From Parafrankia elaeagni (lineage in GTDB: Bacteria > Actinomycetota > Actinomycetes > Frankiales > Frankiaceae): a stretch of 64,000 nt of DNA. The notes beneath the pieces are model-generated. The model was given only the letters and a program-made list of their open reading frames with translations. It ran no database searches and was not told the origin of the DNA. Below, in pieces: positions 29,605 through 48,256 of the stretch. Made by a program: the position numbers and the translations under genes. The first letter of the stretch is position 1, and each line of letters starts with the position of its first letter. The stretch covers positions 32,705 to 96,704 of the forward strand of contig NZ_KB893670.1 in the NCBI RefSeq assembly GCF_000374165.1. Direction: 5' to 3'.

Positions 29605-31581
29605 ATGGCAGAGTCGTCCGCGCGCCTGGCCGGTCCCGCCAGCTCCGCGCCCAACGCCGGCGACGAGGAGGAGCAGGAGCAGGCCGCGGTCCCGAGCAAC
29701 CGCCGCAACGCCGGCCTGCACTCGTTCCTCGCCCACATCCGGACGTTCCGATGGCGTGCGGTGGCCGTTCTGGGCGTTTTCGCCATCGCCAACCTGTTGC
29801 TCGCGGTCGTGCCGATCTTCGCCGGCCGGCTCGTCGCGGCACTGGCTGCCACACCGGTCGACCGGGACGCGGCCCTGTTCGGTGCCGGGGTGCTCATCGG
29901 ATTCGGCGTTCTGCACGACATCTTCTGGCGCAGCGCCGAGCTGCTGTGGGTACGCCTGATCCTCGATCGTGGGTACGAGTACGAGGACCTCGTGTTCACC
30001 AAGGTGATCACCCAGCCTTACCCCTACTTCGTCGGCACCTTCACCGGAAAGATCAGCAGTTACGCGGGAACTCTCGGCCGGGAGTACCGGCTGTTCCTCA
30101 ACTCGGTGTACTGGGAGTACTGCGGGCAGGTCGTGCGACTGCCGACGCTCGCGGCGATCATGTTCACGGTCAACGTGCCGACCGGCTTCGCCTTCGCCGG
30201 CGGCCTGGCGTTGATGCTCCTGCTGGGCCGGCTGACAGTGCGACGGGTGGCGGCCCGGGAGCGGGCCGCTGCCGATGTCGCCTCCGACGTCGAGGGTCAC
30301 ACGATCGATGTGATCGCGAACTTCGTCGCGGTGAAGTCGTTCACGCGGGAGGCGGCCGAGTCGGCCGGGCTCCGGGCCAGGCGGCGTGGCCTGGCCCGGG
30401 TGGCCGCCTCGTCCTACCGGTGGAACTTCCTCTATTTCGGGGCGATGAGCATTGTCGTCCGCTACGTCCTGTGGCCGACGACAATTCTTTTCAATCTGCA
30501 TCTCTATCTGGACGGAAATCTCACGCTCGCGCAGTTCGCCACGTTCCTCACCGCACTGATGGCCTTCTCGGAGTACATCTGGGGCACCGTCTGGTTCGTT
30601 TCCCAGCTGAACCTGCAGCTGGCCCGGGTCGAGGAGGCCTACCGCTACCTTTTCGGCGCCCGCGACATCATCGACGAGCACCGCCGGGTGGCGCCGCGGG
30701 AGGAGACCAGCAGCCCGCCCGCCTACACCCGCTCACTGCGGATCGACAACCTGCGCTTCGCCTACCCGGACGACCCGGCCCGGCCGGTCCTCGACACCAT
30801 CAGCCTGGACGTCGCCCGTAACGAGAAGATCGGGATCGTCGGCCGGAGCGGCAGCGGAAAGTCGACGCTGCTCAAACTGCTGCTGGGCTACTACCCACTG
30901 CCCCCCGGCACGCTGTGCGCCGACGGCGCCCCGATCGACGACCGGCAGCTCGCCCGGCTGATCTCCTACGTCCCGCAGGACATCACGCTCTTCCACCGCT
31001 CGATCCGGGACAACATCGTCTACGGCACCGCCGCGGCGGCGACGCGCGAGGAGGTCGAGGACGCCGCACGCCGGGCCCACGCCCACGAGTTCATCGCCAG
31101 CACCAGGGACGGGTACGACACGCTGGTGGGCGAGCGGGGCATCCGGCTGTCCACCGGGCAGCGCCAGCGCATCGCGCTGGCGCGCGCGTTCCTCAGCCCG
31201 GCCCCGATCCTGGTGCTGGACGAGGCGACCAGCGCCCTCGACAGCGAGAGCGAGCGGCTCGTCCAGGACGCACTGGAGGATCTGTGGGCCAGCCGGACGG
31301 TGATCGCCATCGCGCACCGTCTGTCGACACTGCTGACGATGGACCGGATCGTGGTGCTGGAGGGCGGACGGATCGCCGAGCAGGGCTCACATGAGGAGCT
31401 GCTCACCCGGACCGGGCTCTACCACCATCTGTGGAACCGGCAGAGCGGTGGCCTGATCGGCGGCCGGGATCTGACCGCGGGCCCGGTCGTGCCCAGCCCA
31501 CTTCAAACGCCGAAAAAGAATATCCCCCAGAAGCCTGGGCTTCTGGGGGATATTCCATCTGGTAGCGGGGGCAGGATTTGA
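29605..31581 (+). CDS. ABC exporter, fused membrane and ATPase domains
   Basis: 658-residue half-transporter that probably works as a homodimer. The membrane domain has about six helices between residues 50 and 335; the ATPase has Walker A GRSGSGKST, Q-loop YVPQDITLF, signature LSTGQRQRIALARA, Walker B ILVLDEATSALDSESE and the switch His in AIAHRLS. It looks like a general lipid/drug-type exporter with no substrate clue. The 3' end is odd: about the last 25 codons are formed by the terminator hairpin at 31519-31554 and by the antisense of the initiator tRNA, where the stop codon lies. The natural C-terminus has therefore probably been replaced by read-through into this region. Confidence 0.88.
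   Translation: MAESSARLAGPASSAPNAGDEEEQEQAAVPSNRRNAGLHSFLAHIRTFRWRAVAVLGVFAIANLLLAVVPIFAGRLVAALAATPVDRDAALFGAGVLIGFGVLHDIFWRSAELLWVRLILDRGYEYEDLVFTKVITQPYPYFVGTFTGKISSYAGTLGREYRLFLNSVYWEYCGQVVRLPTLAAIMFTVNVPTGFAFAGGLALMLLLGRLTVRRVAARERAAADVASDVEGHTIDVIANFVAVKSFTREAAESAGLRARRRGLARVAASSYRWNFLYFGAMSIVVRYVLWPTTILFNLHLYLDGNLTLAQFATFLTALMAFSEYIWGTVWFVSQLNLQLARVEEAYRYLFGARDIIDEHRRVAPREETSSPPAYTRSLRIDNLRFAYPDDPARPVLDTISLDVARNEKIGIVGRSGSGKSTLLKLLLGYYPLPPGTLCADGAPIDDRQLARLISYVPQDITLFHRSIRDNIVYGTAAAATREEVEDAARRAHAHEFIASTRDGYDTLVGERGIRLSTGQRQRIALARAFLSPAPILVLDEATSALDSESERLVQDALEDLWASRTVIAIAHRLSTLLTMDRIVVLEGGRIAEQGSHEELLTRTGLYHHLWNRQSGGLIGGRDLTAGPVVPSPLQTPKKNIPQKPGLLGDIPSGSGGRI
31519..31554 (-). terminator. 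Intrinsic terminator of the initiator tRNA, inside the ABC gene 3' end
   Basis: A perfect 17-bp inverted repeat with a 2-nt centre; on the - strand it is followed by TTCTTTTTC, giving a real T-run for the leftward tRNA transcript. On + it lies inside the ABC exporter ORF and has no T-run. Confidence 0.85.
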
Positions 31582-31636
31582 ACCTGCGACCTCTGGGTTA
31601 TGAGCCCAGCGAGCTACCGAGCTGCTCCACCCCGCG
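31560..31636 (-). tRNA. Initiator tRNA-fMet (CAT)
   Basis: On the - strand the gene starts CGCGGGGTGGAGCAGC, has anticodon CAT in the loop CTCATAA, and ends CCCCGCTACCA with an encoded CCA. Two hallmarks of initiators are seen: an unpaired 1-72 position (C1 against T72) and three consecutive G-C pairs in the anticodon stem (GGG/CCC). The T-loop is GGTTCAAATCC. It is therefore the translation initiator, not an elongator tRNA-Met. It has its own promoter upstream and a strong terminator downstream, and overlaps the 3' end of the convergent ABC gene. Confidence 0.96.
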
Positions 31637-42773: not shown

Positions 42774-44528
42774 TCAGGAGCCGGCCGGCTGCGGCGGCAG
42801 CAGGTCCACCGCCGGCTCGTCCGGTTCCGGCTCGCCGTCCGGGGCTGCCCTGGTGGGAGGCTCCGCCGGGGCGGGAACGTCCAGGTAGATGAACCCGTAG
42901 CCCTCGTCGCGAAACCGCAGGCCCTGCTCGCGCAGAACGGCGTCCCAGTCACCCCGGCAGTCCGGATCGGCTGTCTCGAAGCCGTGGTCGGCGGTCAGCA
43001 GAATGGCGGTGGAGTCCGTGAGCCCGCGGCGGTCCACCAGATCCAGGAAGACGCCCAGGCGGCGGTCGGCGTCCGCCAGTGCGGCCCGTGCCTCGGGTGA
43101 GAAGGCCCCGCCGCCGTGGTGGCCGGTGTCGGTGATGGTCGTGTTCCACCAGGTCAGCGCCGGTGGTTCCTGTCCTTCGGACCACAGGTCGATGACCTGG
43201 TTGAGCCCCAGCGCGTCCACCCGCGTCGACCAGGAGTAGTCCCGGTCGGCAGCCACCCAGTCGGGGCTGGCGTGCGGGTCGTCCTGTGCGGAGGGCAGGT
43301 AGTCGTCCATCCGCCCGCCGCCCGCACCGTCCGCCTCCCCGGAGTCACCGCCCTCGGCTGTGCCGCTGGTGACGCCGAGGGCGCGGACGAGGCCGAACGT
43401 CGAGTAGTCCGCACCGCGGTCGATCGGTTCGTTCACGCAGGCTGTCGTGGCTCCGGGACGCGAGGACGCGACCGCCTCGAACACGGTGAGCACCCCGTCC
43501 CGAAGCTGGTCGCAGGCGGCGTGCCAGGAGGCGGCGTCGTTGGTGATCACCTGGCGGCCGGTGGCGCGGTCGAAGTAGACGTTGTGCAGGATCCCGTGCC
43601 GGCCCGGACCGAGACCGGTGAGGGCCGAGGTGTGGTTCGTCAAGGTGACGCTCGGGAACTCCGCGACGGCACCGCCGGTGAGCGCCACCCCGCGGGCAAG
43701 CAGGCGGGCGACGTTCGGCAGCTCCCCACGGGACGCCAGGTCGAGCAGGTCGTTGCAGTTCGTCCCGTCCCAGAGCAGCCCGACCACGTGGCGGGCCCCG
43801 GGCTCGGCGAGGTCGGTGAGCGGGGCTCCCTCCGCGCCGGGCATCTCCGCACCGGCGAGCATCGCCAGTGTCGGGCCGATGTCGACCACCCGGGCGGCCT
43901 TCGGCAGCAGCCCACAGGCGGTGACGCCCGCCCCGGAGAGGATCAGTGGCGCGCGGGACTGACCGGCGTCCAGAGAGCCATGCTCGCCCAGATGCCCCCC
44001 GCGTTCGGGCCAGTAGTGACGCGGTGTGTGGACGACGACGACGTCGGGGGAACGGGTCGGATCGGCGAAGACGGACAGCAGCCGCCGCCCGGCGAACGGA
44101 TAGGAGTTACGGGCGGAGGGCGGCGACGGGTCCGCGAGCGCCGCCGCCAGCGGGACGCCGTGCAGCGGGTCCTGGACCGCGACCGGGTCGCGCCCGCGCA
44201 CGACCTCCCAGGCCCCGTCCGGGTCACCGGTCGGCAGGCGGGACGCACCGTCGGCGTTCGCCACGTGCAGCCAGCCGTCCTCGATCCAGGCGACGAGGTC
44301 GACCACCTGAGCGAGGTCTGAACCGGTGAGAACCTCCACCGCCCGCGCGACGGACACCCCGGCGACAGACACCCCGGCGGCAGGCACCGTGCCGGCGCCG
44401 GCCTGCGCGGCGGCCGGGGCCTGCGCGGCGGGAGTCTCGGCACCGGCGGCCTCAAGGACATGACCGGGACCGGCGACAACCCTGCCGTCACCCGCCCGGA
44501 CCGGATACACACGATCACTGCTGGGCAC
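42774..44528 (-). CDS. Alkaline phosphatase-superfamily phosphodiesterase, circularly permuted
   Basis: 584-residue member of the nucleotide pyrophosphatase/phosphodiesterase clan. The order of motifs is unusual. Residues 180-235 carry elements that normally end the fold: GEHGSL (last metal-binding His), APLILSG, and VVDIGPTLAMLAGAE. They are followed by those that normally begin it: LLWDGTNCNDLL (about 251-262), then FPSVTLTNHTSALTG with the nucleophile Thr at about 295, then TDTGHHGG, and near the C-terminus LTADHGFE. This reads as a circular permutation. No signal peptide is apparent, so the location is unclear. A TAGGGT box six bases before the GTG suggests a leaderless mRNA. Confidence 0.78.
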   Translation of the reverse strand: MPSSDRVYPVRAGDGRVVAGPGHVLEAAGAETPAAQAPAAAQAGAGTVPAAGVSVAGVSVARAVEVLTGSDLAQVVDLVAWIEDGWLHVANADGASRLPTGDPDGAWEVVRGRDPVAVQDPLHGVPLAAALADPSPPSARNSYPFAGRRLLSVFADPTRSPDVVVVHTPRHYWPERGGHLGEHGSLDAGQSRAPLILSGAGVTACGLLPKAARVVDIGPTLAMLAGAEMPGAEGAPLTDLAEPGARHVVGLLWDGTNCNDLLDLASRGELPNVARLLARGVALTGGAVAEFPSVTLTNHTSALTGLGPGRHGILHNVYFDRATGRQVITNDAASWHAACDQLRDGVLTVFEAVASSRPGATTACVNEPIDRGADYSTFGLVRALGVTSGTAEGGDSGEADGAGGGRMDDYLPSAQDDPHASPDWVAADRDYSWSTRVDALGLNQVIDLWSEGQEPPALTWWNTTITDTGHHGGGAFSPEARAALADADRRLGVFLDLVDRRGLTDSTAILLTADHGFETADPDCRGDWDAVLREQGLRFRDEGYGFIYLDVPAPAEPPTRAAPDGEPEPDEPAVDLLPPQPAGS

Positions 44529-44651: not shown

Positions 44652-44927
44652 TCAGGCCGCGACCTCCTTGCGGGGCCGGCCGCGGGGCCGCTTGCGCGGA
44701 ACGACGCGGCCCGTCACGACAAGCTCGCCGCCCCAGACTCCCCAGGGCTCGGCCCGGTCGATCGCGGCGGCCAGGCAGGCCAGCCGCACCGGACAGGCGA
44801 CGCAGACGGACTTGGCGGACTCCACGTCCGCCGGGGATTCGGCGAAGAACAGCTCGGGGTCCACGTCCCAGCAGGGCAGGACGAGACGCTCCCGCTCGAT
44901 CCTGGAATCGATCGAGGGGTCGAACAC
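44652..44927 (-). CDS. whiB7: WhiB7/WblC antibiotic-resistance regulator
   Basis: 91-residue WhiB-type iron-sulfur factor that, with the primary sigma factor, switches on intrinsic antibiotic-resistance genes when ribosomes are inhibited. Cluster cysteines are in LVLPCWDVDPELFF and VCVACPVRLACLAA; then come the WhiB7-specific EPWGVWGGEL turn and the C-terminal AT-hook RPRGRPRKE, which together identify WhiB7. The GTG at 44927 has GGAGG eight bases upstream and gives the expected length; the open frame to 45086 crosses the attenuator and is not coding. It is controlled by the upstream uORF and terminator annotated separately. Neighbours (ABC1 kinase, uvrD2, mycoredoxin) match mycobacteria. Confidence 0.96.
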   Translation of the reverse strand: MFDPSIDSRIERERLVLPCWDVDPELFFAESPADVESAKSVCVACPVRLACLAAAIDRAEPWGVWGGELVVTGRVVPRKRPRGRPRKEVAA

Positions 44928-45040
44928 CGGGGTCACCTCCGACACTGGCGGTTTCTTCGGTTCGGTTGCGGTCCTGCGTCCATCGACGACGGTCAAGATC
45001 ACACCTCGGGTGGTGGCCGGCACTGATGCGCCAGGAGAAA

Positions 45041-45077
45041 CAAAAAGGCCGCGGATCCCTGTCGGGACCGCGGCCTT
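45041..45077 (-). terminator. whiB7 transcription attenuator
   Basis: On the - strand AAGGCCGCGG plus an inner 4-bp stem (one bulge) pairs with CCGCGGCCTT around a 4-nt loop and runs into TTTTTGTTT. It lies between the uORF stop (45099) and the whiB7 start (44927), so it ends transcription before whiB7 unless an antiterminator forms. Confidence 0.88.
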
Positions 45078-45098
45078 GGATGTCACTCCGAGTCGGCG

Positions 45099-45401
45099 TT
45101 ATGCCAGGAGCGGATCCGGGACGGGGCCCGACGGGTGGTACAGACGCGTGGTGCGTGCGCCTGTGCGGATGCCGGTCGTCTGCTCATGCGTCAGGTGCTC
45201 GTGCGCCGTGTGCGCCGCCGGGACGGCGGAGCCGCAGCCGGCAACGCCTGCTTGGGCGGACCCGGCGACAGCGAGCGCCCTGCGGGCATCACCCAGGGCA
45301 TCTGCCTGCAGGGCGGCCCTCGGCGCGTTGGCACCACGCGGCAACGAGACGTCGGCGGGGAGCGAGCGCATACGCGCGAAGGCCACCATGAGGTACCTCA
45401 T
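45099..45401 (-). CDS. whiB7 leader uORF (100 aa)
   Basis: Upstream ORF with a strong GGGAGG eight bases before its ATG. The product starts MRYLMVAFARMRSLPADV and ends GPVPDPLLA; its TAA is 21 bases before the attenuator hairpin. Translation speed over this ORF would decide whether the terminator or an alternative structure forms, the known logic of WhiB7/WblC induction by ribosome-targeting drugs. The peptide looks like no enzyme and is probably a sensor of translation only. A GTG/ATG further upstream in the same frame lies before the ribosome site and is not used. Confidence 0.82.
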   Translation of the reverse strand: MRYLMVAFARMRSLPADVSLPRGANAPRAALQADALGDARRALAVAGSAQAGVAGCGSAVPAAHTAHEHLTHEQTTGIRTGARTTRLYHPSGPVPDPLLA

Positions 45402-45450
45402 CGTGGTGACCTCCCTCGCGAGCCGTAGGTGCGGACCGCATCCGGCCCGC

Positions 45451-45469
45451 GAGCGCGATGATCGCGCTC
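45451..45469. promoter_or_regulatory. Palindrome near the whiB7 transcription start
   Basis: The 19-base GAGCGCGATGATCGCGCTC is a nearly perfect palindrome about 15-25 bases after the -10 box. It would form a hairpin at the very 5' end of the leader RNA or serve as an operator. Confidence 0.5.
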
Positions 45470-45484
45470 CAGTGTTCACGGACA

Positions 45485-45522
45485 ACGGTAGGAGCCGCCG
45501 CCCACGCTGACAACCTATTTTT
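45485..45522 (-). promoter_or_regulatory. whiB7 promoter, WhiB7-autoregulated type
   Basis: On the - strand TTGTCA (45513-45508), 17 bases, then TACCGT (45490-45485), preceded a few bases upstream by the A/T-rich AAAAATA (45522-45516). An A/T-rich block just upstream of the -35 is the known feature of promoters that WhiB7 activates with SigA, using its AT-hook. The transcript would start near 45478, about 550 bases before whiB7. Confidence 0.8.
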
Positions 45523-45658
45523 CGCGCGATCATCCAGACACGTGCAGCCACAGGCACGATCGGGCCATCCCGGGCGTGTCACCGTCCGCGACGTATCCGT
45601 TTCCGGTGTTCGGTGTTCGGTGTTCGGACATGGTGCTGTCAGGGCAGGTGCGACACGC

Positions 45659-48016
45659 TCAGCCGGTGGGCCCCGCTGGTCGCGGGCTGCCCGCGACCAG
45701 CGCGAGGACGTCCTCGCCGTACCGGTCGAGCTTGACCTGGCCGATGCCGGGCAGTGCCACGAGCTCGGCGACGGTGGCGGGACGCCGTTCGGCGACGAGG
45801 CGCAGCGTCGCGTCGGTGAGGACGACGAAGGCGGGCTGGCCCTGTTCCTTCGCCCGTTGTGCCCGCCAGGCGCACAGCCGCTCGAACAGCGCCGTGTCGA
45901 CCTGCCCCGGGCAGTCGTCGCACCGGCCGATCCGGGCCCGGGCGCCCGCGAGAGCACGCCCGCAGACCCGACAGGTGACGCTCTGCCGCCCCCGTCCCCG
46001 CCCGCGGGCCTGCCCGCGGTCCGCGCCGCCGATGGACCGGGCGGCGGTGTCCCGGCCACCGGGCGAGCCGCCCGCGTCGGGTCCCCCGGCGGGGCCGGAC
46101 GCCCGGGCCGTGGACCTGCGCAGGTCGTCGAGGAACCGCGACGGCCGCCGGGAGCGGCGCGTGCCCTCGGCCCGGGCCAGTGCCCACGACAGCGTGAGAT
46201 GGACGCGCGCGCGGGTGACCCCGACGTAGAGCAGCCGCCGTTCCTCGGCCAGTTGCTCGTCGGTCTGCGCGTGGATGATCGGCAGGGTCCCGTCGACGAG
46301 CCCGACCAGGAAGACCGCGTCCCATTCCAGGCCCTTGGCCGCGTGCAGCGAGGCCAGCGTGACGCCCTGCACGGTCGGGGTGTGCTGGTGCACGGCGCGC
46401 TCGGCCAGTTCGGTGACGAAGGTGGTGAGGCTGGCTTCGGGCTGGTCGGTCTCGAGGTCGGCGGCGAGGCGGTGTAGCGCGGCCAGGTTCTCCCACCGTT
46501 CACGGTCTGCACCCGGGCCCGCCGGGGCCTGGCCTGCCCGCCAGCCGACAGCGCCGAGGACGTCCGCGACGGCGTCGGCGAGCCCGCCGGGGCGGTCCGG
46601 TTCCGCGGAGCGGACCGCCGCACGCAGCATCCGCACCGCCGCGGTCACCTCGGGCCGCTCGAAGAACTTCTCCCCGCCGCGCAGAAGGTACGGGATGTCC
46701 GCCCGGCCGAGCGCGGTCTCGTACGCCTCGGACTGCGCGTTGATCCGGTACAGCACCGCGATCTGACTGGCCGGGACGCCGGCGGCCAGCAGACCGCGGA
46801 TACGGCGGGCCACCCCGGCCGCCTCCTCGGGCTCGCTGTCGGCCTCCAGCCAGGCCGGCGCCGGGCCCGGTGGGCGCATGGCGACCAGCCGCCCAGCCCG
46901 CCCGACCTGCCCGACCTGCCCGGGCTGCCCGACCTGCCCGGGCTGCCCGACCTGCCCGGGCTGGCTCGCCCGGCCACCGCCCGGCGCGGTCGCACCGTCG
47001 AGCAGACCGTTCGCCAGGGCGACCACCTGCGGAGTGGACCGGTAGTCGCGGACGAGCCGGACGACCGTGGCGGTCGGGAACCGCCGTGGAAATCCGACCA
47101 GGTAGCGGGCGCTCGCCCCGGTGAAGGAGTAGATGGTCTGGTGCTCGTCCCCGACGACGCACAGGCTGTCCCGGTCGCCGAGCCAGGCATCGAGAACGCG
47201 CTGCTGGAGCGGGTTGACATCCTGGTACTCGTCGACGACGAAGTGCCGGTAGCGGGCCCGCAGCTCGGTCGCGACCCAGCTGTGCTCCTCGATGACGGCC
47301 GCGGTGAGCAGCAGCAGGTCGTCGAAGTCGAGGACGCTCGCCTCACTCTTGACGTCCTCGTAGGCCTCGTAGAGCCGGGCGACGAGGTCGGGGGCCAGCG
47401 AGGTCTCCCGCCCGTGCTCGGCGGCGGCGCCGGGGTAGTCGGCGGGGGTGACCATCGTCGACTTCGCCCACTCCACCTCGGAGGCGAGGTCGCGCAGCTC
47501 GGCCCGGTCCGGACGGATCTGCAGGCGGGCCGCCGCCCGGACGAGCAGGGGTATCCGGCTCTTCTCCAGTCTCGGCAGCGCCACGCCGGCCACCTGCGGC
47601 CAGAAGTAGCCGAGCTGGCGCAGCGCGGCGGCGTGGAACGTCCGGGCCTGGACGCCTTCCACCCCCATCGACCGCAGCCGCCCGCGCAGCTCACTGGCGG
47701 CCCGGTTGGTGAAGGTGACGGCCAGGACCTGGCCGGCGCCGACGCCCCGTTCCGTCACCATGTGCGCGATCCGGTGCGTGATGGCCCGGGTCTTGCCCGT
47801 GCCGGCGCCCGCAAGGATGCAGACCGGGCCCACCGGGGCCAGGACCGCGGCGAGCTGCTCGGGGTCGAGACCCTCAGTCGGCGCCAAGGCCGCCGCGCGC
47901 TCCGCGGCCGCGGCCGGCATCGGCTCGACGGCGGCCTTCGGTTCCGCTGCGGGCGGCCGACGGCGTGCGGCGGCCGTCACCTGGCGGTTCCCGCGAGTAC
48001 CTGGTCCGGACATCAT
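45659..48016 (-). CDS. uvrD2: UvrD2-type superfamily 1 helicase with HRDC domain
   Basis: 785-residue 3'-5' DNA helicase. Motifs: Walker A AGAGTGKT, TFTNRAASELRGR (Ia), VVDEYQDVNPLQ (II), VVGDEHQTIYSFTGA (III), VRDYRSTP (IV), LHAAKGLEWDAVFL (V) and LLYVGVTRAR (VI). Near the C-terminus a C-x2-C...C-x2-C zinc element (CRVCGRAL, CDDCPG) leads into an HRDC domain (about the last 80 residues), the UvrD2 layout; UvrD2 is essential in M. tuberculosis. A GQVGQP repeat (about 18-bp units near 46905-46975) is inserted in domain 2 and is probably a loop. ATG 48016 or 48013 follows a TACGGT box. Confidence 0.94.
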   Translation of the reverse strand: MMSGPGTRGNRQVTAAARRRPPAAEPKAAVEPMPAAAAERAAALAPTEGLDPEQLAAVLAPVGPVCILAGAGTGKTRAITHRIAHMVTERGVGAGQVLAVTFTNRAASELRGRLRSMGVEGVQARTFHAAALRQLGYFWPQVAGVALPRLEKSRIPLLVRAAARLQIRPDRAELRDLASEVEWAKSTMVTPADYPGAAAEHGRETSLAPDLVARLYEAYEDVKSEASVLDFDDLLLLTAAVIEEHSWVATELRARYRHFVVDEYQDVNPLQQRVLDAWLGDRDSLCVVGDEHQTIYSFTGASARYLVGFPRRFPTATVVRLVRDYRSTPQVVALANGLLDGATAPGGGRASQPGQVGQPGQVGQPGQVGQVGRAGRLVAMRPPGPAPAWLEADSEPEEAAGVARRIRGLLAAGVPASQIAVLYRINAQSEAYETALGRADIPYLLRGGEKFFERPEVTAAVRMLRAAVRSAEPDRPGGLADAVADVLGAVGWRAGQAPAGPGADRERWENLAALHRLAADLETDQPEASLTTFVTELAERAVHQHTPTVQGVTLASLHAAKGLEWDAVFLVGLVDGTLPIIHAQTDEQLAEERRLLYVGVTRARVHLTLSWALARAEGTRRSRRPSRFLDDLRRSTARASGPAGGPDAGGSPGGRDTAARSIGGADRGQARGRGRGRQSVTCRVCGRALAGARARIGRCDDCPGQVDTALFERLCAWRAQRAKEQGQPAFVVLTDATLRLVAERRPATVAELVALPGIGQVKLDRYGEDVLALVAGSPRPAGPTG

Positions 48017-48021
48017 GCGAC

Positions 48022-48027
48022 ACCGTA
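48022..48027 (-). promoter_or_regulatory. Leaderless -10 box (TACGGT) of uvrD2
   Basis: TACGGT on the - strand lies five bases before ATG 48016 and eight before ATG 48013. Confidence 0.45.
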
Positions 48028-48256
48028 GTCGGGGCACGTCCCGACACGCGGGACCGGGAAGCGAAGACGCCACATCGGGGTTATGCACCTCGCCACCCAC
48101 CGGCACAACCACCAGGACCGGACCTCCCGGACGAGGCCCCGCCAGACCGGGCGATCCGGCCTACCATCGCCAAACGCGCCGGCGTCGCCGACGAAGACCA
48201 CACCGCGCTACCGGTCGCCGTCCCCGGACGGGTCACTCACCAACGGAGGTTCCGCC

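What the first reader, a model, noticed from the sequence alone, without database searches (positions are those of the whole stretch)
44652..45522. Complete whiB7 attenuation module: WhiB7-type promoter, 100-aa uORF, terminator, gene
On the - strand the region reads, in order: an A/T-rich block and TTGTCA-N17-TACCGT promoter, a 5' palindrome, a 100-codon uORF with a strong ribosome site whose stop lies 21 bases before a strong intrinsic terminator, then whiB7. Ribosome-mediated attenuation of whiB7/wblC is established in mycobacteria and streptomycetes; the exact uORF here and the long peptide are specific to this organism. A 5' palindrome adds a possible antiterminator half.
Basis: partly seen in the sequence, partly recalled or inferred. 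Interest (0 to 1): 0.75.

Follow-up and report, generated by a model that had tools for sequence, protein, structure and literature searches.

The report
whiB7 leader attenuator in Frankiaceae
This is the switch in front of whiB7, a bacterial gene that turns on defences when protein synthesis is blocked; it looks like an ordinary member of a switch type known from mycobacteria and Streptomyces, with a long, nearly sequence-free sensor reading frame.

Summary
On the minus strand are a WhiB7-type promoter, a 100-codon uORF with a strong ribosome site, a -28 kcal/mol hairpin with a T-run 21 nt past the uORF stop, and whiB7 (91 aa, GTG 44927). The organism is a Parafrankia relative. The layout was scored in 34 of 35 sampled Frankiaceae genomes with WhiB7.

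Two interpretive points fail. The long uORF is not specific to this organism: called uORFs are 53-198 codons in Frankiaceae, 88-123 in Streptomyces-type leaders. The 5' palindrome is a self-folding hairpin seen in Parafrankia, with no sign of pairing to the terminator.

The uORF evolves as coding sequence (in-frame indels) with a nearly neutral middle. Its last 14 codons are frozen even at synonymous sites, so the constraint there is on RNA. That end, the stop codon and the terminator's 5' arm can form an alternative hairpin, the likely antiterminator. In the window its arm pairing is no stronger than in shuffled controls, and equilibrium folding favours the terminator, so switching would have to be kinetic.

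Verdict: new member of a known kind, the whiB7/wblC uORF attenuator. Mildly new: evidence that the uORF is a generic ribosome test track rather than an arrest peptide.

The parts
45485..45523 (-). WhiB7-type promoter: GAAAAAT, 3 nt, TTGTCA, 17 nt, TACCGT
   Evidence: in the 34 distinct Frankiaceae leaders selected by the promoter expression, GAAAWY-N3-TTG is exact in 17 and differs only in its first letter in 17 (the window is of the second kind)
45451..45469 (-). 5' palindrome GAGCGCGATCATCGCGCTC, hairpin near the inferred transcript start
   Evidence: stem predicted in 6 of 7 Parafrankia leaders; function unknown
45099..45401 (-). uORF, 100 codons, ATG start, SD GGGAGG
   Evidence: coding-type evolution
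45102..45131 (-). 3' end of the uORF (last 10 codons): 5' strand of the putative antiterminator; near-copy of the terminator's 3' half
   Evidence: (D2, 79% over 19 nt)
45062..45131 (-). putative antiterminator hairpin, stop codon in the apical loop, outer strand pairing with the terminator 5' arm
   Evidence: for; against:
45042..45077 (-). intrinsic terminator hairpin and T-run
   Evidence: I5; missed by the generic scan
44652..44927 (-). whiB7, 91 aa, GTG start
   Evidence: the only one of 6 WhiB-family hits in this genome with an AT-hook by eye
45659..48112 (-). UvrD-type helicase with HRDC domain, upstream neighbour

Best explanation
A ribosome-mediated transcription attenuator of whiB7. 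Transcription starts near 45478 from a WhiB7-activated promoter. Ribosomes load at the strong SD and translate the 100-codon uORF. If they reach the last ~12 codons and the stop in step with RNA polymerase, they cover the uORF end, the hairpin at 45077-45047 forms, and transcription stops before whiB7. If translation is slow or blocked upstream of that, the uORF end is free to pair with the terminator's 5' arm as it emerges, termination is avoided, and WhiB7 is made and feeds back on its own promoter. Shown by sequence: the parts, their conservation, the uORF's coding status, RNA-level constraint on its end. Inferred: transcript start, the switch, its kinetic nature, induction by antibiotics.
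For: All parts present. Layout scored in 34 of 35 sampled Frankiaceae genomes with WhiB7. Stop-to-hairpin gap 18-25 nt in 32 of 34 leaders and 40 nt in 2, while uORF length ranges 53-198 codons. Indels in multiples of 3 in 26 pairs: 49 of 69 in the uORF against 3 of 29 upstream and 6 of 57 downstream. dN/dS 0.78 in the uORF middle against 0.11 in whiB7; synonymous change 0.017 in the last 14 codons against 0.114 in the middle (10 Frankiaceae pairs: Fisher p 1.8e-4). RNAalifold on 20 Parafrankia/Frankia segments that I had trimmed to this region gives the antiterminator, 3 of 18 pairs with two-sided changes; 97.0% of cells of 14 core pairs form pairs against 30.6-50.4% for slid versions. A covariance model from those 20 matched all 8 leaders given from two other genera (4 of 8 Pseudofrankia-type, 4 of 5 Protofrankia-type were given), E 1.4e-5 to 0.012, at the expected place. 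Ribosome-masking scan of the window: native arm pairing at most 0.02 with the ribosome at codons -12 to stop (7 of 7 positions), 0.40-0.81 at 13 of 14 positions from -40 to -14, 0.09 at the other, 0.51 with no ribosome. The mechanism is described for whiB7/wblC in PMC10727445 and PMC9618640 (passages seen).
Against: At equilibrium the terminator wins even without a ribosome: -48.7 with terminator against -32.0 for the antiterminator; P(terminator) is 0.79 or more in 38 of 39 leaders. In the window the arm-sequestering pairing is no better than codon shuffles (45% of 20 as good) or other uORF stretches (11 of 22; 53% of 32). Only 8 of 34 Frankiaceae leaders reach the 5% mark, against 38 of 42 Streptomyces-type and 25 of 33 others. 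Swaps of uORF ends and arms between genera give no general own-partner advantage. An alignment of all 34 Frankiaceae regions gave no antiterminator in RNAalifold. Two looser masking measures showed no clean switch: little change in the window with a ribosome at the stop (0.67 to 0.66), and mixed results in 10 leaders. Among the 14 core pairs the number with two-sided change (2) does not exceed shuffles (300 of 500 as high). No expression data.
Confidence: 0.85

Rival explanations
1. The uORF encodes a drug- or amino-acid-specific arrest peptide, or an alanine sensor: ribosomes stall at particular codons, as in ErmCL-type or trp-type leaders.
For: Ala is 19.6% of Frankiaceae uORF residues against 14.7% in flanking open frames, 19.0 against 13.6 in Streptomyces-type, 16.1 against 14.5 in the rest; GCA and GCT over-used in Frankiaceae, GCA in Streptomyces-type. 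Alanine starvation is cited as requiring WhiB7 in mycobacteria (PMC10727445, passages seen).
Against: The middle evolves nearly neutrally and length varies 53-198 codons. Synonymous sites at the end are as frozen as amino-acid sites, pointing to RNA. In L063/L065 the stop lies about 6 codons further upstream, yet the apical hairpin downstream is kept. Other A/T-ending codons are over-used too, so the codon signal may be relaxed usage.
Confidence: 0.12
2. The terminator is a fixed brake and induction is at the promoter only; the uORF only keeps RNA translated and protects it from Rho.
For: Equilibrium folding favours the terminator in 38 of 39 leaders; the antiterminator is weak in the window; the promoter is strongly conserved.
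Against: RNA-level freezing of the uORF end and two-sided pair changes; narrow range of stop-to-hairpin distance; attenuation in mycobacteria and Streptomyces as reported in the passages seen.
Confidence: 0.08
3. The 5' palindrome is the antiterminator half.
For: Perfect 19-nt palindrome close to the inferred start.
Against: Folds on itself, compensatory changes within Parafrankia by eye, not seen in the other genera that keep the rest of the module; no inverted repeat with the terminator listed.
Confidence: 0.03
4. The uORF is a functional small protein gene co-transcribed with whiB7.
For: Open frame kept, in-frame indels.
Against: No Pfam or NCBIfam family at E 0.001 for the window's uORF; near-neutral middle and nearly fourfold length range.
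Confidence: 0.03

Closest known systems
whiB7/wblC uORF attenuator of mycobacteria and Streptomyces (Lee et al. 2022; Burian and Thompson 2018; neither seen, known through citing papers, passages)
   Same: WhiB7-autoactivated promoter, uORF, intrinsic terminator, uORF and terminator sequences able to form an antiterminator, whiB7 downstream
   Different: Frankiaceae have longer uORFs (median 136 codons, up to 198, against a median of 107 in Streptomyces-type), their own uORF ends, and a weaker predicted antiterminator; Parafrankia add a 5' hairpin
Amino-acid biosynthesis attenuators (trp, recalled; ilvB1, PMC13236596, passages seen)
   Same: Ribosome position on a leader frame decides between terminator and antiterminator
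   Different: I noticed no run of regulatory codons in the window's uORF; the frame is long and its middle nearly neutral
Short uORFs of ARE-ABCF resistance genes (are5sc, tiaA; PMC12421871, passages seen)
   Same: Antibiotic-stalled ribosome is proposed to prevent premature termination
   Different: Those peptides are 3-9 residues and respond to one group of antibiotics; here 53-198 codons

Membership tests
WhiB7/WblC transcription factor | WhiB domain with four Cys, GVWGG turn and C-terminal AT-hook | tested here: met
   Pfam WhiB; C19, C42, C45, C51, GVWGG and RGRPRK invariant in the 9 aligned sequences (window included)
whiB7/wblC uORF attenuator | WhiB7 box (GAAAWY) 3 nt upstream of the -35, TANNNT -10, 16-19 nt spacer (PMC7157823, passages seen) | tested here: met
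   window AAAAAT-AGG-TTGTCA-N17-TACCGT, 5 of 6 box letters; exact in 17 of 34 Frankiaceae leaders
whiB7/wblC uORF attenuator | Translated uORF between promoter and terminator | tested here: met
   SD, in-frame indels, dN/dS below 1 in the first 12 codons and the middle; translation itself not observed
whiB7/wblC uORF attenuator | Rho-independent terminator between uORF and gene | tested here: met
   the generic scan missed it
whiB7/wblC uORF attenuator | Antiterminator made from overlapping uORF and terminator sequences | tested here: inconclusive
   for; against for the window:
whiB7/wblC uORF attenuator | Read-through induced by translation inhibitors or amino-acid starvation | not testable with these tools
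   needs RNA measurements
Arrest-peptide leaders | Peptide sequence under selection near the stall site | tested here: not met
   synonymous sites of the end equally frozen, middle near neutral; shortened end in L063/L065

The most novel reading that the evidence does not exclude
The whiB7 uORF is a sequence-free ribosome test track: only its start, reading frame, length and RNA-structured end are selected. Each codon upstream of about -14 is a place where a stalled ribosome leaves the antiterminator strand free, so the natural range of 53-198 codons would tune how sensitively different actinobacteria detect translation block by any drug.
Probability: 0.35. Interest if true: 0.5.

Novelty: new member of a known kind. 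Interest (0 to 1): 0.3.

Why it matters
It extends the whiB7 attenuator to Frankiaceae. Natural leaders that differ nearly fourfold in uORF length while keeping a related end could be used to ask how one leader senses many unrelated translation inhibitors. No Rfam family matched the leader at gathering threshold, so an RNA family could be built.

Tried and rejected
One search was a mistake: the query was out of frame by one base. Its hits fell on the right loci through DNA similarity and gave loci L007-L036; the search was repeated in frame. One search timed out and was redone with a faster aligner.

An energy-only duplex test, a first masking measure and a looser one did not discriminate, and an alignment of all 34 Frankiaceae regions gave no antiterminator; these are reported as results against. 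The genus swap test favoured own partners only in the Pseudofrankia-type genus.

A conserved dyad GTGTC-N8-GACAC upstream of the promoter in Frankia was tested as a regulon operator: 3, 4 and 4 sites in three Frankia genomes, 0 in two genomes of other genera; the sites other than whiB7 lack the WhiB7 box and I saw no common theme in the neighbours looked at. Set aside.

The window's promoter pattern, as narrowly written, occurs once in the genome, so the WhiB7 regulon was not mapped. The uneven alanine enrichment was not pursued further.

Papers not held: Lee et al. 2022, PMC11031301, PMC3249081, PMC10122055. Whether they already report uORF lengths or near-neutral evolution I could not check.

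Full report
What is there. The minus strand carries, in order, a WhiB7-type promoter (45523-45485), a 19-nt palindrome (45469-45451), an SD and a 100-codon uORF (45401-45099), 21 nt, a -28.1 kcal/mol hairpin followed by T's (45077-45042), and whiB7 (44927-44652). The gene has the WhiB domain, GVWGG and an AT-hook. It is the only one of six WhiB-family hits in this genome with the AT-hook. A UvrD/HRDC helicase lies upstream; from memory uvrD2 lies by whiB7 in M. tuberculosis, but the neighbour was not checked in relatives. A same-genus genome shares the leader of Parafrankia sp. EUN1f (L013 and L069), so the organism is a Parafrankia relative.

More than chance. Of the 36 genomes of this family, 35 have a WhiB7-like match at E 4.7e-38 or better; the exception, G008, is 63% complete. 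Promoter, SD-uORF and hairpin were scored in 34 of these 35; the promoter expression was the filter for that set. The 35th (L151) has a recognisable but diverged version by eye. The uORF stop lies 18-25 nt before the hairpin in 32 of 34 leaders and 40 nt in two, although the uORF varies from 53 to 198 codons. A generic consensus scan found neither promoter nor terminator.

Outside the family. Of 187 sequences screened (many of them overlapping copies), 160 passed the WhiB7 motif filter (one, L004, a false pass) and 27 were dropped. One search processed 80 distinct leaders: 7 gave no terminator by my criteria (one of them L151, Frankiaceae), 1 had no uORF, 2 had uORFs under 40 codons and were left out of later counts, 70 were kept. 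With five non-Frankiaceae leaders, called uORFs are 88-123 codons in 42 Streptomyces-type leaders and 37-130 in 33 others. Starts were picked by script from SD and start codon. The long uORF is therefore usual, not peculiar to this organism. Groups were assigned by end motif and differ slightly; for example L134, a Streptomyces, fell in the 'other' group. Leaders of related species are not independent.

How the uORF evolves. In 26 close pairs, indels are multiples of three in 49 of 69 cases inside the uORF, 3 of 29 upstream and 6 of 57 downstream: it is a coding frame. In ten Frankiaceae pairs dN/dS is 0.41 in the first 12 codons, 0.78 in the middle (p 0.049 against equal rates), 1.82 in the last 14 codons and 0.11 in whiB7; in 18 other pairs 0.57, 0.65, 0.91 and 0.07. 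The high ratio at the end comes from very low synonymous change: 0.017 against 0.114 in the middle (p 1.8e-4), and in the other pairs 0.049 against 0.209 (p 5e-8); nonsynonymous change at the end is also low, 0.030 against 0.091. Constraint on synonymous sites means constraint on RNA. In L063 and L065, two related genomes, the stop lies about six codons further upstream, and the hairpin that holds the stop in their relatives is kept.

The alternative hairpin. In the window the uORF end is a 79% copy over 19 nt of the terminator's second half. RNAalifold on 20 Parafrankia and Frankia segments, trimmed by me to this region and cut before the terminator's 3' arm, gives a hairpin with the stop codon in its loop and an outer strand on the terminator's 5' arm, 18 pairs, 3 with two-sided changes. 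The same program on an alignment of all 34 Frankiaceae regions did not. For 14 core pairs, chosen from individual folds, 97.0% of cells pair against 30.6-50.4% in slid versions; the number of pairs with two-sided change (2) does not exceed the shuffles (300 of 500 as high), while cells with two-sided change and the covariation score do (0 of 500). Eight Pseudofrankia-type sequences: 99.2% paired, one two-sided pair, not above shuffles (152 of 500). Several of these changes may be single events between genera. A covariance model from the 20 was run on 57 sources. It matched all 8 leaders given from two other genera at E 1.4e-5 to 0.012, each spanning the stop and the terminator arm; 5 further leaders of those genera were not given. 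L025, of a fourth genus, reached only 0.23. A non-Frankiaceae locus, L177, matched at 0.0085, and two hits on the wrong strand of training-type loci at 0.037 and 0.13 show the noise level. None of the six Streptomyces-type loci given (L086, L097, L100, L108, L120, L182) matched at E up to 1.

Does it switch? Masking 30 nt for a ribosome in the window, native pairing on the terminator arm is 0.40-0.81 at 13 of 14 positions from codon -40 to -14 (0.09 at the other), 0.51 with no ribosome, and at most 0.02 at 7 of 7 positions from -12 to the stop. Two looser measures that count any pairing between uORF and arm showed no clean switch (0.67 to 0.66 in the window; ten leaders). With the 3' arm present the terminator wins (-48.7 against -32.0 kcal/mol), and P(terminator) is 0.79 or more in 38 of 39 leaders. 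The arm pairing reaches the 5% mark against codon shuffles in 38 of 42 Streptomyces-type, 25 of 33 other and only 8 of 34 Frankiaceae leaders; in the window 45% of 20 shuffles do as well. Duplex and swap tests do not support a window-specific pairing. The antiterminator is therefore moderately supported as a conserved element of the family, weakly supported as an efficient competitor here, and must act while RNA is being made.

Compared with what is known. Passages seen describe this mechanism for whiB7/wblC in actinobacteria: uORF translation favours the terminator, stalling favours an antiterminator using overlapping uORF and terminator sequences (PMC11550727, PMC10727445, PMC9618640, and PMC13236596 on stalling in the uORF). 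A search for whiB7 with Frankia returned two papers, seen as listings only. The case is a new member of that kind.

Remaining idea. Near-neutral middle, kept frame, nearly fourfold length range and an RNA-structured end fit a generic ribosome test track better than an arrest peptide or a codon-specific sensor. Alanine is somewhat enriched (19.6 against 14.7%), which leaves a role for alanine starvation open. I saw no statement of the test-track idea in the passages read, but I made no search for it and the key paper was not available.

Noticed in passing
45524-45534 and 45457-45467 (window): An 11-bp perfect inverted repeat (GATGATCGCGC / GCGCGATCATC) flanks the promoter core.
   Followed up: partly
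L016-L019, L021, L027-L033, from about 20 bp upstream of the A/T block: In 11 of these 12 Frankia leaders a dyad GTGTC-N8-GACAC sits directly upstream of the WhiB7 box (L032 has one mismatch); related half-sites occur in Pseudofrankia-type leaders (by eye). It may be a binding site for a second regulator of whiB7.
   Followed up: partly
L063 and L065 leaders: The uORF stop lies about 6 codons further upstream than in relatives, with the downstream hairpin kept.
   Followed up: partly
L017, L019, L036 uORFs: uORF middles look built from in-frame short repeats (by eye), a likely way the length changes.
   Followed up: no
42774-44528 (window): Downstream gene on the same strand is a type I phosphodiesterase/nucleotide pyrophosphatase-family protein.
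   Followed up: no
31563-31636 (window): A tRNA gene on the minus strand, the only Rfam match in the window at gathering threshold.
   Followed up: no
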